In this document: positions 378 through 6,270 of the stretch, piece after piece
How the letters are laid out: the number at the start of each line of letters is the position of its first letter
Numbering within the stretch: position 1 is the stretch's first letter
Virus record (IMG/VR): IMGVR_UViG_3300034682_000265
Coordinates: 1-35,111 of that record
DNA length: 35,111 nt
DNA from: a virus
Direction: 5' to 3' (one strand)
Notes under the pieces: model-generated
The model's input: only the letters and a program-made list of their open reading frames with translations
The model's database searches: none
What the model was told of the DNA's origin: nothing
Position numbers and translations under genes: made by a program

Positions 378-1364
378 TCATGCGACAGGTAGCGGGTTTT
401 CCAGCGGGTTGAAGCGCACCGCATCGCTCAGATAGTCCGGTGCAAAGTGGGCATAGGTCATCGTTTGCTGGATGTTGTGATGGCCCAGAATTTTTTGCAG
501 CGCAAGGATGTTGCCCCCGGACATCATGAAGTGTGATGCAAACGTGTGCCGGAACACATGCACCGCCTGCCCTGCTGGCAGATCCGGCGCCACGGTCTTG
601 AGAACGTCACGCACCAGCAAATAGTCGAGGTCACGGAACAGCGGACCCCGGTTCACCCCGTTTGTTATCTCCTGACACAGCTCGGCCGAGATCGGCACGG
701 TGCGGTTCTTGCCATTCTTTGTGTTGATGTAGGTCACCCGGCTGGCCAGCACATCTTCACGGCGCAGATTGGCTGCTTCACTCCAACGCGCTCCCGTGGC
801 CAGACAGAGTTTGACCACTTTCAGGTTATCCCCAGATAGCGCAGCTAGAACGTCGCCGATCTCTTCCTGGGTCAGGTAGCCCATCGACCGCTCAACCAGT
901 TTGACCTTCTTCATCTCTTTGAGCGGGTGCTCGTGGTGGTAGTGACCGAGATCGGTGAGCACTGAGAAGACCCCGCCCAGCATCTCCTGCTCGCGGTTCA
1001 CAGTCTTGGGTTGTCGGCCGGCATGCAGTCGCTGCGCCCGATACTCGGAGAACAGAGCCCGGGTCACTTGTCTCGCCAACGGGTGGCGCAACGCGGCATC
1101 GATATTGTGGAGTTTCTTTCGTACCTCCCCCCCTGCTTTCAGGGTCTGGCCATGGTAGCGCCACCAGAGTTCGATCAGCTCGGATAGCGGCCGGTTATCT
1201 GCCGGGCGATCCACCCACTCTTTATTATGCTCGGTGGCGATCACCCAACGCTCGAACTGCTGGGCTTCGGACTTGGTCTTGAAGCGCTTGCGGATCCGCT
1301 TGCCTTCCCTCCCCTGCGGGCGGATATCGACCAGGTACCCTTCAGGCGTGGACTTGATACTCAT
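378..1364 (-). CDS. int: Tyrosine recombinase integrase
   Basis: Site-specific recombinase that integrates and, with Cox, excises the phage. The 328-residue protein has an N-terminal arm-binding/core-binding part and a C-terminal catalytic domain. Visible catalytic residues are Arg193 (in TGARWSEAANL), a probable beta-hairpin Lys near 219, His269-x-x-Arg272 (HVFRHT), His295 (LGHH) and the Tyr304 nucleophile (MTYAHF). The ATG start at 1364 has a strong AAGGAGG (about 1368-1374) and overlaps, as ATGA, the stop of a 27-codon leader ORF. A LexA box lies about 95 bp upstream, so transcription is probably SOS-controlled. It sits between the putative attP and the KAP gene, as in HP1/K139-type phages. 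Confidence 0.95.
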   Translation of the reverse strand: MSIKSTPEGYLVDIRPQGREGKRIRKRFKTKSEAQQFERWVIATEHNKEWVDRPADNRPLSELIELWWRYHGQTLKAGGEVRKKLHNIDAALRHPLARQVTRALFSEYRAQRLHAGRQPKTVNREQEMLGGVFSVLTDLGHYHHEHPLKEMKKVKLVERSMGYLTQEEIGDVLAALSGDNLKVVKLCLATGARWSEAANLRREDVLASRVTYINTKNGKNRTVPISAELCQEITNGVNRGPLFRDLDYLLVRDVLKTVAPDLPAGQAVHVFRHTFASHFMMSGGNILALQKILGHHNIQQTMTYAHFAPDYLSDAVRFNPLENPLPVA

Positions 1365-1444
1365 CGCCCCTCCTTATATAGAAAGGCGCTCACCCACCCA
1401 CACATCGGTACAGCTCCCAACTTCTGTACTGTCACTGTTATCAT
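1361..1444 (-). CDS. Short leader ORF overlapping the int start
   Basis: This 27-codon ORF starts with ATG at 1444, right behind an AAGGAGG sequence, and its TGA overlaps the int ATG (ATGA). The spacing from AAGGAGG to the ATG is only one base, which is short; a GTG at codon 4 has better spacing. The predicted peptide begins MITVTVQKLGAV and has no recognisable domain. It lies between the LexA box (1460-1475) and int, so any transcript from that promoter must carry it. The likely role is translational coupling to int rather than a functional peptide. Coding status is inferred from the ribosome site and the exact overlap. Confidence 0.4.
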   Translation of the reverse strand: MITVTVQKLGAVPMCGWVSAFLYKEGR

Positions 1445-1459
1445 ACCTCCTTCAAAATA

Positions 1460-1475
1460 CTGTTGTTTTATACAG
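1460..1475 (-). promoter_or_regulatory. LexA (SOS) box upstream of int
   Basis: CTGTTGTTTTATACAG is a perfect CTGT-N8-ACAG with an AT-rich centre; flanking bases (TA...TG) also resemble the enterobacterial SOS box. Read on the int strand it contains TATAAA, a good -10 hexamer, so LexA binding would occlude the promoter. It is 16 bp before the leader ATG and about 95 bp before int. Confidence 0.75.
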
Positions 1476-1828
1476 TGTTTTTCGGAAAATATCAGTGTTT
1501 GACTGAGTCTGCCATATACATAGGAGAGCCGTAATTTGGGCCACTTGAAAGATCGACGCCTTACTCACTTGCGGATGATGGACGTATTGATGGTGGTGGG
1601 TGGGCCTGACAGGGTGACAGTTTGCTGAGTTCTGCAGGATCGTATCGGCAACGGGCGTCATCAATGACCCTGCCCTCTAAGCAGGGGTTTGCCCTTGTCG
1701 GTAAAGTGCTTACGGGGTCCTAATGGCCCTAGGATATGCTTCAATCCGCCACACCTTGGCATTGACGTCATCGAATTTGCGAAAAGTTCTTTTTAACTTT
1801 CTTACTGTATTATCAAATTGGTTATCCT
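1476..1828. other. Intergenic region between the KAP gene and the int promoter
   Basis: About 350 bp with no credible gene. A small hairpin, CCCTGC (1668-1673) with GCAGGG (1681-1686) and a 7-base loop followed by GTTT, may be a weak terminator. The rest would hold the upstream part of the LexA-controlled int promoter. I see nothing else. Confidence 0.4.
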
Positions 1829-3355
1829 CTAATCCAGTGAAGCCGCAAGCTCTACTAAATCCCGATAAACTCTTTTATCTATCCGACGCATCTGTTCATT
1901 TAGATATTCAAATTTTAGCAGTGGTATATGAGTCTCCTCATTACGAAGCGACATGCCATCTTCGTTAAACATCTGTCGAATCTCTGCTTTAAATTCAGAT
2001 AGATTTATTCCATGCGTTGTGATCCTTGCTCCACTCTCACTTTCGAATACATCACTGGTATATAAAAAAATGGATTCAAAATATTTCTCTAAAGGACATG
2101 TCAAAATTTCAGACTCACTATCAACCATAGCACTAAATTTTAATTTAGAATGAAAGTAGCCTTTCCCCTTAAATAAGTCAATGTAATTCCCAACACTTAC
2201 CGAACCAACTGACATATTATAAATTTCAGTATCTCTAACCCTGAGGCAGTGAAGTATAGTGAGATAAATCAAATCTATTTTCGCACCTGGCTTCAAATTC
2301 AAAAGTGAAGCGACGATTCTATTCACGATTTGAATGGCCAACCTTGGTGATAGATTAAAAGACTCTAAAACATTAATTACATTTTCTATGTGCTTGTGAT
2401 GTGCAGGCCAAAGTATAATTTGGTGTTTTTCATAACAATCTCTAAACACGCTTGTGTTACAGTGCGACTCAATCAACGTTTTAAGAGGAGCTTCACGTAA
2501 ACTAAAACGAGAATCGAAAAATCTGGTTAAATATGTTTGCGCATCAAAACCATTGCCATAAACCACTTTAATTGCATGTTGAAGCTGTTCTGTATCTGTT
2601 GCGATAACAAAAAACACTCCAGGAATATCAAAGATATGCTTGACTGTTTCAAGCATTTCTACCGCATAGCTAGGGCGACAACGGTCCAGCTCATCAATAA
2701 TGACCACTGTGGGTTTTCCATCAAGAGAGCCTTGCCCTGATACCGCACCAATCCACCCAGTGATATCATTCTTCAGTGCCTTAATCGATGCACTCTTTTT
2801 TTCATGAGATGAAATCAAAAACTTAGCCATATTGGCTGCCGCATCCCCAACATCTTTGCTGATATCTGCGGAAACTGGTTCCAGCAATGATGTAATTTCG
2901 TTAATATCTTTCCCTAGATATTTTTTGGCTGCCGCACCAACCAATAATGGTCCCATAGCCTTTAACAGTGACCAACCGTTTTCCATCCCCTTTGATAATG
3001 CTGAGGTTTCTGGTTTGTCAGTAAGACCTCGCAACGTGGCAATGATTGCTGATATTACAGTCATAAATGGATCATCAGAGTGATCGCTCTTCCATGCATC
3101 TATATAAATGACTGGATGATGTTTCTCAAGGTCATACTTTAAACGCTTTAAGAAATAGGTCTTACCTGTGCCCCAACCGGAATTTAGGTTTAACACATAG
3201 GGTTTATCTTTATTCTGACCTAACAAGTACCCTGCCAAAAACCTAGCGTATTTTTCCCTACCTAGCTGGTCTTCACGAAAATGCTCATCATCGATATCTA
3301 CAGGACTGGACCAATCAATTTGCATACCGCTAGTTACATCGAGTTGTTTAGCCAT
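1829..3355 (-). CDS. KAP family P-loop NTPase (putative exclusion/defence cargo)
   Basis: A 508-residue KAP NTPase. The Walker A motif GWGTGKT lies at about residues 60-66 and Walker B VVIIDELDR at about 217-225, followed by CRPSY, the typical KAP signature. A weakly hydrophobic segment (about 130-147) sits between them, where KAP proteins often carry membrane insertions. The family includes F-plasmid PifA, which excludes phage T7, and several defence-associated NTPases. I chose ATG 3355, which has AAGGA about 8 bases upstream, over an upstream GTG at 3385 that lacks one. Base composition is clearly more AT-rich than the late genes, suggesting acquired cargo. It lies 74 bp downstream of the BRCT gene on the same strand, so the two are probably co-transcribed. 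The exclusion role is inference from family and location. Confidence 0.85.
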   Translation of the reverse strand: MAKQLDVTSGMQIDWSSPVDIDDEHFREDQLGREKYARFLAGYLLGQNKDKPYVLNLNSGWGTGKTYFLKRLKYDLEKHHPVIYIDAWKSDHSDDPFMTVISAIIATLRGLTDKPETSALSKGMENGWSLLKAMGPLLVGAAAKKYLGKDINEITSLLEPVSADISKDVGDAAANMAKFLISSHEKKSASIKALKNDITGWIGAVSGQGSLDGKPTVVIIDELDRCRPSYAVEMLETVKHIFDIPGVFFVIATDTEQLQHAIKVVYGNGFDAQTYLTRFFDSRFSLREAPLKTLIESHCNTSVFRDCYEKHQIILWPAHHKHIENVINVLESFNLSPRLAIQIVNRIVASLLNLKPGAKIDLIYLTILHCLRVRDTEIYNMSVGSVSVGNYIDLFKGKGYFHSKLKFSAMVDSESEILTCPLEKYFESIFLYTSDVFESESGARITTHGINLSEFKAEIRQMFNEDGMSLRNEETHIPLLKFEYLNEQMRRIDKRVYRDLVELAASLD

Positions 3356-3429
3356 TATAGTACATCCTTGACCTAGAATATTCACATATCACCAAGTGAA
3401 CTTATCAAACATGGATTCGTGTTAAAGCC

Positions 3430-4314
3430 TTATATCGGCTCTGAAGCAACCCTTACCCAGTCTTCTTCATTGATGATCTGAATAACCTGCCCTTTTTCCT
3501 TCGCTTTAATTACGGCTTCAATCTTGCGGCCATGGCTGGTGAACATCCAATCGCGGCTGGCCAGGCTGCCAACAATCAGCACATCGAGATGCGTAGTAAC
3601 CCCCTTCACAGGGGAGGCACCAAGCAGCTTGGCTTGCTGCTCTAAATTGTGACGGGTATCGGAGAGAAACTTTCCTGTGAAGCAGACTGTCTTGCCTCGA
3701 AGACTCATCACATTGCCATCGGCAAAGAACTCGGTCGCCATCCCAGCCGCAAGACCTGATTCTGTGAAGCGCTGCCCGGAAATCTGTTTCACCAGTTCCA
3801 GCAGATCTTCGCGCTCGTCTTCGGTGATTTCGCCATCTGCCAAAATATCGTTGAGACGGTTGAACAGCAGGCTACCCGGCCATGAGGCCAACAGGTCACG
3901 ATGCTTGAGCAGCAGCGCTCTAAGAGCATGCACCTCTTGTTCCACGATGTTGCTGTCGGCACTGATGCCTTGCAGGAAGCCGAGCAACATATTGACCAAC
4001 GCATCCATGTTGTCGTGCTCAATCTCGTTGTACTGCAGCACATCATTGAGCAGGTTCAACAGGTCTTCTTTCTCATCGGCTGTGATGATCCCATCTTTGA
4101 GAACGTCGTGGATGAGATCTTGAATATCGAGGAAATCACCATCTTTTTTGAACTCGGAATCCGATTTCAACCAAGTGGCCATAAAGAGAACTTCTGTGTC
4201 GTTAAGACGCTGATCGGCAGTGAGGCCGCTCAAGATACCGTGAAGGCTGATCAGTGCTTTTTGCTTATTGCGCTTGTAACCAAATGACATTGGCACATCA
4301 TTGAACTCTGACAT
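3430..4314 (-). CDS. TerB-like/BRCT-domain protein
   Basis: A 294-residue protein whose C-terminal region (about 203-290) is a BRCT domain of the DNA-ligase type: LRGKTVCFTGKF, then an LGASPVKGVTTHLDVLIVG-like core and a final W near 286. The N-terminal 180 residues are acidic and helical, with two similar segments, DGIITADEKEDLL (about 74-86) and DGEITEDEREDLL (about 160-172), reminiscent of TerB-like folds. The start ATG at 4314 has AGGGAG upstream. It precedes the KAP NTPase gene in the interval between cI and int, so the pair forms a two-gene unit likely expressed in the lysogen. Its function is unknown; BRCT domains bind DNA ends or phosphoproteins, so a sensor role is possible but unproven. 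Confidence 0.8.
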   Translation of the reverse strand: MSEFNDVPMSFGYKRNKQKALISLHGILSGLTADQRLNDTEVLFMATWLKSDSEFKKDGDFLDIQDLIHDVLKDGIITADEKEDLLNLLNDVLQYNEIEHDNMDALVNMLLGFLQGISADSNIVEQEVHALRALLLKHRDLLASWPGSLLFNRLNDILADGEITEDEREDLLELVKQISGQRFTESGLAAGMATEFFADGNVMSLRGKTVCFTGKFLSDTRHNLEQQAKLLGASPVKGVTTHLDVLIVGSLASRDWMFTSHGRKIEAVIKAKEKGQVIQIINEEDWVRVASEPI

Positions 4315-4401
4315 GTTTTCTCCCTAAAACGTCTCTGCCGCTCAAGCATGTCGTCCATTGTTATGTGGGTCTGGGCGTGGCTATAAGCTGGCAACGGATA
4401 T

Positions 4402-4429
4402 AAAAACAGGGCGCATTAGCGCCCTGTTT
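4402..4429 (-). terminator. Intrinsic terminator of the repressor gene
   Basis: AAACAGGGCGC (4404-4414) and GCGCCCTGTTT (4419-4429) form a perfect 11-bp stem with a 4-base loop (ATTA). Read leftward, the stem ends in TTTTTATA. The repressor's TAA stop (4416-4418) lies inside the loop. Confidence 0.85.
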
Positions 4430-5114
4430 GTCTTTTTCTGTATGACCTGTGTTCTACCATCACGCCGATGATCTGGATGTGTTGTCGGTCGGAATGCATG
4501 GTGGGGTAATCGTCATTGAGAGGGACCAGCTCAAACACCTCTTGTCCGCTCTCGTCGATGCCGCGGGGCCGGTACTTCTTGAAGGTGGCCTCTTCGCTGC
4601 CGTTCTTGGCCACGACGAAATCCCCTGGTTGGGGCGCTTCGTCGGGATCAACGATGATGAGGTCGCCTTCCTTAAAGAAGGGTTCCATCGACTGCCCACG
4701 CAACCAGAGGCCGAAACCACAAGGGCCAACATCCACCCCCGCCGTCACATACTCAACGTTGCCATCAAAAGCGGTGGCCTGTTCACACATCTCGTGCCAG
4801 TGGCCGGCCTGAACATAGCTCAGCACAGGCACGCGCGTACCTTGCGGGATCACGGCAGGTTCGACGTTGTGATATCCAGGCATCACTTCTGGTGCAGGCT
4901 GTGCCCTCGCCTCCCCGTCTCCAGTCAAAAGCCAGTCAACAGTGACCCCCAGCGCTGCCGCTAAATCATTGAGATAGCGACCCTTTGGCTGGTTAAGTCC
5001 CGACTCCCACTTGCTAACAGACGCATGGGAAATACCAACACGTCGGGCAAGCTCAGCCTTACTCATTTTCTGTGCCTGCCGGCTGGCAGTTATGCGGTCA
5101 TTGATCGTTTCCAT
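4416..5114 (-). CDS. CI-like repressor with LexA-type S24 autoprotease
   Basis: Maintains lysogeny by repressing the early promoter. The 232-residue protein has an N-terminal helix-turn-helix (about 17-38, recognition segment GISHASVSKW) and a C-terminal S24 peptidase. The predicted self-cleavage site is Ala103-Gly104 (YVQAGHW), with catalytic Ser142 (RGQSMEP) and Lys179 (EATFKKY). Known members of this class cleave themselves on contact with activated RecA. This differs from P2's own C repressor, which lacks a protease domain, and resembles repressors of inducible phages. The gene is divergent from the Cro-like gene across four operator-like repeats, and its stop codon lies in the loop of its own terminator. 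Confidence 0.93.
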   Translation of the reverse strand: METINDRITASRQAQKMSKAELARRVGISHASVSKWESGLNQPKGRYLNDLAAALGVTVDWLLTGDGEARAQPAPEVMPGYHNVEPAVIPQGTRVPVLSYVQAGHWHEMCEQATAFDGNVEYVTAGVDVGPCGFGLWLRGQSMEPFFKEGDLIIVDPDEAPQPGDFVVAKNGSEEATFKKYRPRGIDESGQEVFELVPLNDDYPTMHSDRQHIQIIGVMVEHRSYRKRQTGR

Positions 5115-5117
5115 GAA

Positions 5118-5216
5118 ACCTAAGTTACCACTCCAAAATCACACTTAAGTATCAAACTCTCTTGACTCCCGTTTATTACATAAGTTACGCTTCGGTCATT
5201 GATGATCCTTAAGTTA
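5118..5216. promoter_or_regulatory. Divergent early control region with four operator-like repeats
   Basis: Four related 10-mers lie between the repressor and Cro-like genes: ACCTAAGTTA (5118-5127), ACTTAAGTAT (5143-5152), ACATAAGTTA (5178-5187) and CCTTAAGTTA (5207-5216). The shared core is TAAGT, and the second copy contains the perfect palindrome ACTTAAGT. A rightward -35 candidate, TTGACT (5163-5168), has a poor -10 (TACGCT) 17 bases on, overlapping copy three; a TATATT lies at 5215-5220. Repressor and Cro-like protein share the recognition segment GISHA(S/A)VSKW, so both probably bind these sites. Confidence 0.65.
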
Positions 5217-5234
5217 TATTTTGTGAGGTCGAGA

Positions 5235-5432
5235 ATGCAGAAACATGACGTCTTAGAACACTTCGGCAGTATCACTGCCATTGCCAGGGCTATTGGGATC
5301 TCTCACGCCGCTGTCAGCAAGTGGGACGAAACCATCCCCCAAGGCCGCGCCTACCAGATCGAGGTGCTGACCGGCGGCAAATTGAAAGCCGGCGCGCACA
5401 GCACCCCGCAACAACCCACCCCCTGTGTTTGA
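5235..5432 (+). CDS. Cro-like helix-turn-helix regulator
   Basis: A 65-residue DNA-binding protein of the small Cro (YdaS/DicC-like) type. The helix-turn-helix covers about residues 12-31, with recognition segment GISHAAVSKW nearly identical to that of the divergent repressor. The expected role is to repress the repressor promoter and favour lytic growth. I use the ATG at 5235, which follows a GAGG sequence (5225-5228); an earlier in-frame ATG at 5199 lies within the operator/promoter region and has no ribosome site. The tail after residue 50 is Pro/Gln-rich and probably disordered. It is the first gene of the rightward early operon. Confidence 0.85.
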   Translation: MQKHDVLEHFGSITAIARAIGISHAAVSKWDETIPQGRAYQIEVLTGGKLKAGAHSTPQQPTPCV

Positions 5433-5453
5433 ACCCCCTGAGAAGGATTCATC

Positions 5454-5723
5454 ATGGTTACTCGAACCAAACCCATCCGTATCCCCAGCGATGTGAGCCA
5501 GTTGCCGCTTGATTACCCCTTTGGCAATCGCGTCAGCGAAAGCCTGGAGGAGTACGCCAAGCGTCAGGGCTTAACGATTGGGGCCGTTAAAAAGCGCGCC
5601 GACCGCGGCCAGTTGCCCATCTTGCAAGACGGCCCGGGCGCGCCTCGCGAGGTTAACCTTTACGCCCTGTTCCTGCAGGCCCGTTATCAGGCCGAGCGCT
5701 ACGTCACCATGACGCTCGCGTGA
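5454..5723 (+). CDS. Cox-like excisionase/regulator
   Basis: An 89-residue protein with a helix-turn-helix-like segment, YAKRQGLTIGAVKKRADRG followed by QLPI (about residues 34-56), which resembles P2 Cox (FAKLIGKSTGAVRRMIDKGKLPV). In P2, Cox directs Int to excision and represses the repressor promoter. Length (P2 Cox is 91 residues) and position in the early operon agree. It starts at ATG 5454 with GAAGGA upstream and lies 21 bp after the Cro-like gene. The Cox assignment rests on remembered family similarity; a generic MerR-like regulator is the alternative. Confidence 0.65.
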   Translation: MVTRTKPIRIPSDVSQLPLDYPFGNRVSESLEEYAKRQGLTIGAVKKRADRGQLPILQDGPGAPREVNLYALFLQARYQAERYVTMTLA

Positions 5724-5760
5724 ACCTGCCAACACCATAACGGGTCAAGGAGACGTTCGC

Positions 5761-6270
5761 ATGTTTACCGAATACGCCAGCAAACATCCGCACTGGATAA
5801 GCGCCTGCCAACGCTTTGCCGCCAGTCACAACATGGCCGAGATCGCCCAGCGGGTAGGCATGAATCCGCAGCTCCTGCGCAACAAGTTAAACCCCGATCA
5901 GCCCCACGAACTGACGGTGGCCGAGCTGATTGCCATCACCCAGGCGAGTGAGGGCGATGAAACTCTGTTCGATGGCGCCCTGTTTGGCTGTGGCTTGACG
6001 GCCGTTGCCATCCCCCAGGCAGAACGGGCCCCTTCCCTGCCCCATCAGGCCATCGATCTGAACGCCAAGATTGCCAGCATTGGCCAACGCGCGCTGGAGC
6101 TGACCGACCGCGGCCGGATCACCCGCTCGGAGCGCAACACCCTGGTGAGCGTGGCCACCTCGGCAATGGGATCGCTCGCCATCTTGATCCACGACATCGA
6201 GGCCCGCTTTCAGGCGGTGCCCGCCCTGGCCTGCGCATCAGACATCCTGATGCAGGCCGCGACCATGTGA
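5761..6270 (+). CDS. CII-like regulatory protein (phage CP76 family)
   Basis: A 169-residue protein resembling the phage CP76/CII regulators of P2-like phages such as 186. The N-terminal helix-turn-helix is within about residues 20-42 (HNMAEIAQRVGMNPQLLRNKL), followed by PDQPHELTVAELIAI, a hallmark of the family. The C-terminal half is helical. In phage 186, CII activates establishment of the repressor; a similar role is inferred here. The ATG has AAGGAG eight bases upstream. It lies 37 bp after the Cox-like gene in the same early operon. Confidence 0.8.
   Translation: MFTEYASKHPHWISACQRFAASHNMAEIAQRVGMNPQLLRNKLNPDQPHELTVAELIAITQASEGDETLFDGALFGCGLTAVAIPQAERAPSLPHQAIDLNAKIASIGQRALELTDRGRITRSERNTLVSVATSAMGSLAILIHDIEARFQAVPALACASDILMQAATM

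What the first reader, a model, noticed from the sequence alone, without database searches (positions are those of the whole stretch)
1829..4314. KAP NTPase plus TerB-like/BRCT pair as a candidate exclusion system
The two genes form an operon in the lysogenic interval between repressor and int, a common site for cargo. KAP NTPases include PifA, which blocks T7. A BRCT partner is unusual and could sense DNA ends or ligase-like states made by an invading phage. I do not know this pair as a named system.
Basis: inference. Interest (0 to 1): 0.7.

Follow-up and report, generated by a model that had tools for sequence, protein, structure and literature searches.

The report
Swappable defence-candidate ATPase in prophage
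A P2-like temperate phage of Aeromonas type carries, in a slot already known to hold anti-phage cargo, a swappable KAP-family ATPase gene that probably helps the host cell exclude other phages, next to an unrelated core phage gene with a DNA-end-binding (BRCT) domain, so the two are neighbours and not a conserved two-gene system.

Summary
Both genes are real: KAP NTPase 1829-3385(-), likely start ATG 3355 (Pfam 5.9e-48), and BRCT protein 3430-4314(-). Order: cI, BRCT, KAP, int, in a P2-like phage related to Vibrio phage K139. Comparative data split the pair. In five close relatives the BRCT gene stays after cI (60-99% identity) but the gene before int differs each time. DNA similarity stops at the BRCT stop codon and resumes near 1475-1524, so KAP lies in an exchanged AT-rich cassette (40% G+C versus 62%). 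In K139 this slot holds glo, annotated as involved in phage exclusion. Among 79 KAP clusters and 30 BRCT-family clusters no locus has both. KAP recurs without this BRCT gene: 29 viral loci (24 clusters) have it directly upstream of int. Rousset et al. 2022 already described this cI-int interval as a defence hotspot. KAP best matches PADLOC candidate PDC-S20; its model resembles the RADAR ATPase RdrA. Best reading: single-gene exclusion/defence ATPase as hotspot cargo, beside an independent cI-linked BRCT gene with a conserved predicted 5'-phosphate pocket. Defence activity is inferred, not shown.

The parts
1829..3355 (-). KAP-family P-loop NTPase gene (508 aa from ATG 3355; ORF open to GTG 3385); Walker A about residues 60-66, Walker B about 216-225; no transmembrane segment by hydropathy (max 19-residue mean 1.33)
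1525..3429 (.). Exchanged cassette that carries the KAP gene; G+C 40% against 62% for the remaining phage
   Evidence: DNA similarity to L006, L007 and L011 ends at 3431-3452 and resumes at 1381-1524; composition
3430..4314 (-). BRCT protein gene (294 aa; helical N-terminal two thirds, BRCT about 204-294), homologue of phage K139 Orf2 (51% identity); core, cI-linked gene of this phage group
4404..4429 (.). Perfect 11-bp inverted repeat with T-rich tails overlapping the cI stop codon; likely terminator or attenuator between cI and the BRCT gene, kept in 5 of 7 relatives compared
   Evidence: RNA fold -20.6 kcal/mol
4416..5114 (-). CI-type repressor (HTH plus S24 peptidase domain)
378..1364 (-). 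Tyrosine integrase, downstream border of the slot

Best explanation
The KAP gene is a single-gene cargo (moron) in the published cI-int defence hotspot of K139-related P2-like prophages. It is expressed from the prophage and most likely excludes or aborts infection by other phages. The AAA+/KAP domain is expected to form an ATP-dependent ring like RdrA or QatA, and the divergent C-terminal region to recognise a phage-made signal or carry the effector surface. The neighbouring BRCT protein is a separate component of the phage's lysogeny region; its domain is predicted to bind 5'-phosphorylated DNA ends or nicks, and its job (switch or damage sensing, or an exclusion role of its own) is independent of KAP. 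Shown here: gene identities, the exchanged cassette, KAP recurrence at int without this BRCT gene, and active-site conservation. Inferred: expression, defence activity, ring assembly, abortive outcome, and DNA-end binding.
For: KAP domain with invariant catalytic residues. Best PADLOC match PDC-S20 E=1.7e-87, ahead of PifA 8.6e-26 and QatA 2.2e-14. Cassette borders and composition. The slot holds different genes in L006, L007, L009, L010, L011 and glo ('involved in phage exclusion') in K139. Other relatives' slots hold an HNH nuclease and other cargo. Rousset 2022 names this interval as a hotspot with RM, Septu and PARIS among hotspot contents. 29 viral loci in 24 clusters have KAP directly before int, mostly straight after cI. 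No overlap between 79 KAP and 30 BRCT clusters. The predicted model is nearest RdrA of RADAR (Z 15-18 against about 13 for ORC/Cdc6). QatA, a KAP protein, binds DNA and forms 7-8-mers (PMC13279940). BRCT family: T213, G214, R221, K264 invariant in 28 sequences.
Against: No phage-challenge data exist for this gene or, in what I could read, for PDC-S20. The KAP C-terminal region (387-487) was modelled with pLDDT under 50, so sensor and effector are unknown. PADLOC PDC models are candidates, not validated systems. The other cargo of the closest relatives (L006, L007, L009, L010) matches no PADLOC model, so the slot is not proven to be defence only. KAP relatives are also common on plasmids, where roles other than defence are possible. 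The BASEL authors note that PifA affects very few phages and may have another main role (PMC8594841).
Confidence: 0.66

Rival explanations
1. KAP and the BRCT protein act as one two-gene exclusion system: BRCT senses DNA ends of an invading phage and KAP is the effector.
For: Adjacent, same strand, 74 nt apart; BRCT pocket residues invariant. In 4 of 29 int-adjacent KAP loci (L110, L111, L112, L144) a different small BRCT protein lies between cI and KAP.
Against: 0 of 79 KAP clusters and 0 of 30 BRCT clusters hold the other gene. The closest relatives keep BRCT and swap KAP. Most int-adjacent KAP genes follow cI directly with no BRCT. G+C differs between the two genes (0.386 against 0.499).
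Confidence: 0.08
2. Conserved sensor with swappable effectors: the constant BRCT protein signals to whichever gene occupies the variable slot behind it.
For: BRCT is constant and the next gene differs in every relative of the K139/Aeromonas group read.
Against: In many P2-like loci BRCT is followed directly by int with no cargo; in lambdoid-type loci it stands tail-to-tail with cI; KAP lives without it elsewhere.
Confidence: 0.07
3. KAP is a regulator or maintenance factor of the prophage (affects lysogeny, induction or excision) and not a defence gene.
For: Position between cI and int; an authors' remark that PifA and RexAB may have other main roles (PMC8594841).
Against: Close relatives of the phage do without it; its best models are defence candidates; relatives are also plasmid-borne.
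Confidence: 0.15

Closest known systems
PDC-S20 (PADLOC phage defence candidate, KAP NTPase)
   Same: Best NTPase-domain match (1.7e-87, residues 31-393 of 518); KAP homologues at int in other P2-like phages match it equally well
   Different: C-terminal quarter not matched; PDC-S20 is itself only a candidate
PifA of plasmid F (T7 exclusion)
   Same: KAP NTPase domain, about 22-24% identity to plasmid PifA-type proteins
   Different: Only positions 13-344 of the 720-position PifA model match; no pifC; shorter; no evidence for T7 specificity
RdrA of RADAR
   Same: Nearest solved fold by structure comparison, Z 15-18
   Different: 14-16% identity; no RdrB deaminase in the cassette; about 300 residues shorter
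QatA of qatABCD
   Same: KAP NTPase; weak HMM match
   Different: 51.6 bits against an NCBIfam cut-off of 600; no QatB, QatC or QatD neighbours
K139 cI-orf2-glo-int region; hotspot of Rousset et al. 2022
   Same: Same gene order, same BRCT family (51% identity), same variable slot
   Different: The slot holds KAP instead of glo

Membership tests
KAP P-loop NTPases (PF07693) | Profile match above gathering score with intact Walker A and B | tested here: met
   164 bits against a cut-off of 20; catalytic residues invariant in 36 homologues
PDC-S20 | Best match to the PDC-S20 model over the NTPase region | tested here: met
   1.7e-87, 31-393 against model 10-357/464; PADLOC's own coverage rules were not applied
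PifA | Full-length PifA match and pifC-pifA context | tested here: not met
   Only model positions 13-344 of 720 match; neighbours are BRCT and int
QatABCD | QatA score above cut-off with QatB-D neighbours | tested here: not met
   51.6 against 600 bits; neighbours are int and BRCT
RADAR | RdrA with an adjacent RdrB adenosine deaminase | tested here: not met
   The cassette holds only the KAP gene; its neighbours are int and BRCT; fold similarity only
cI-int defence hotspot of K139-related phages | Variable genes between CI and integrase of a K139-like P2-type phage | tested here: met
   Synteny with K139, swapped content in relatives, published description, P2-type structural and Rep genes in the window
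Anti-phage defence system | Protection in a phage challenge | not testable with these tools
KAP+BRCT two-gene system | Recurrence of the pair in unrelated loci | tested here: not met
   0 of 79 and 0 of 30 clusters overlap; 4 loci have a BRCT of another family
DNA-end-binding BRCT class (LigA, Rfc1) | BRCT fold with T-G...R...K 5'-phosphate pocket | tested here: met
   Fold match to LigA and Rfc1; T213, G214, R221 align with TG...R of Rfc1 and are invariant, as is K264. Which RFC1 residues form the pocket is from memory (work of Kobayashi et al.); the 5'-phosphate preference of the isolated BRCT is in PMC9293009
DNA-end-binding BRCT class (LigA, Rfc1) | Measured binding to 5'-phosphorylated DNA ends | not testable with these tools
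   Needs a binding assay

The most novel reading that the evidence does not exclude
The helical/BRCT protein is a phage-made sensor of 5'-phosphorylated DNA ends tied to the CI switch in many temperate phages, and in K139-type phages it also activates whichever exclusion gene occupies the slot behind it, here a ring-forming KAP ATPase.
Probability: 0.07. Interest if true: 0.75.

Novelty: new member of a known kind. Interest (0 to 1): 0.3.

Why it matters
It adds a KAP NTPase to the contents of a known prophage defence hotspot and shows that PDC-S20-type KAP genes recur directly upstream of int in at least 24 clusters of P2-like phage loci. That is a natural set for testing single-gene KAP defence, and the conserved cI-linked BRCT family (149 relatives reported in viral contigs) is an untested phage DNA-end-binding candidate.

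Tried and rejected
The pair as a conserved unit: rejected by co-occurrence. KAP as PifA, QatA or RADAR proper: rejected by coverage, cut-off and neighbours. Membrane-anchored KAP: no segment reaches transmembrane hydropathy. Single-sequence pattern searches for KAP gave nothing in viral contigs and one distant hit in genomes; the profile search was needed. The genome search by genus is not possible for a virus record. A text search for PDC-S20 found no paper. Nesper 1999 on the K139 control region is not held, so the role of Orf2 could not be read. The helical part of the BRCT protein was not searched alone for a fold.

Full report
What is there. The window is a virus record of 35,111 bases with P2-type genes: nicking Rep protein, portal, terminase, scaffold, major capsid, sheath, baseplate. 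On the minus strand the order is cI (4416-5114), BRCT protein (3430-4314), KAP NTPase (1829-3385, likely start ATG 3355), int (378-1364). The KAP assignment is strong (PF07693, 5.9e-48). The BRCT domain is below Pfam's cut-off by 0.1 bit but is confirmed by PHROG_3989 (1.7e-90), LigA models, and a predicted model (mean pLDDT 79) whose residues 203-294 match the BRCT of LigA (Z 11.3) and of Rfc1 (Z about 10).

What the relatives say. K139 has cI, orf2 (BRCT, 51% identical), glo (annotated as involved in phage exclusion), int. In IMG/VR contigs L006, L007, L009, L010 and L011 the BRCT gene follows cI at 60-99% identity, but the slot before int holds a 452-aa membrane/coiled protein, a 286-aa membrane protein, a three-gene set with a STAS-like member, a 232-aa protein and a 415-aa BRCT-containing protein respectively. 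Window DNA aligns to L006, L007 and L011 up to 3431-3452 (the BRCT stop) and again from 1381-1524 towards int; between lies an AT-rich segment (40% G+C against 62% for the phage). So KAP is part of an exchanged cassette whose one edge is the end of the BRCT gene.

Does the pair recur? Profile searches found 149 BRCT-family and 262 KAP relatives in viral contigs; the best 80 of each were read. With the loci from plasmids, phages and one genome these make 30 BRCT clusters and 79 KAP clusters at 90% identity, with no locus in common. A limit: only the flanks held (a median of about 11.6 kb per KAP locus) and the best 80 were tested. KAP lies directly before int in 29 loci (24 clusters), usually straight after a CI-type gene. 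Four of these (L110, L111, L112, L144) have a small BRCT protein between cI and KAP, but of another family. The BRCT family occurs as cI-BRCT-int without cargo, as in L078, or tail-to-tail with cI in lambdoid-type loci such as L025.

What is known. Rousset et al. [quoted passage not shown] cholerae phage K139 and Aeromonas phage PhiO18P, and list RM, Septu and PARIS among the contents of this and a second hotspot. The site of this finding is therefore known. BRCT and PifA do not occur in that paper's main text and 'KAP' only as part of an author name; its supplementary tables were not open to me. KAP matches PADLOC's PDC-S20 (1.7e-87), then PifA (8.6e-26, NTPase part only) and QatA (2.2e-14).

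Mechanism. The predicted KAP model (mean pLDDT 71; residues 387-487 unreliable) is nearest RdrA of RADAR (Z 15-18; ORC/Cdc6 about 13). RdrA forms heptameric rings (PMC9994260) and QatA binds DNA and forms 7-8-mers (PMC13279940). No membrane segment is predicted. I infer an ATP-dependent ring ATPase that responds to a phage signal through its divergent C-terminal region. Which phages, which trigger and which outcome are unknown. A 2026 preprint on Roseobacter prophages also mentions BRCT-domain proteins in exchangeable lysis-lysogeny modules and associates them with DNA-damage sensing (PMC13345283).

Verdict. Observation confirmed; pair interpretation not supported; cargo/exclusion interpretation of KAP supported by context but untested. 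New member of a known kind, in a known place.

Noticed in passing
window 4404-4429; same place in L006, L007, L009, L010, L011: Perfect 11-bp hairpin with T-rich tail overlapping the cI stop codon, kept in 5 of 7 relatives compared (diverged in L019, absent in L008): probable terminator or attenuator inside the supposed lysogenic operon.
   Followed up: partly
L008 5362-5982, L011 6949-8196, L092 4701-5879, L110-L112, L144 5319-5801: A second class of small BRCT proteins (in L092 with a WYL-like part) also sits between cI and int in P2-like phages, sometimes next to KAP.
   Followed up: partly
L024-L087 (for example L025 5965-6885 and 6868-7554): BRCT-family gene tail-to-tail with a CI-type repressor in many lambdoid-type prophage contigs; function unknown, not paired with KAP.
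   Followed up: partly
window 4416-5114 against L007 5129-5899 and L009 5237-5899: The CI repressors share a nearly identical C-terminal half but have quite different N-terminal HTH halves, as if immunity specificity had been swapped by recombination within the gene.
   Followed up: no
L018 (Vibrio furnissii record NZ_CP035695.1) 509-6200: A 16.7 kb record listed as a plasmid holds cI, hypothetical genes, DUF2971, KAP, int in the phage order, so it may be a prophage piece or phage-plasmid.
   Followed up: partly
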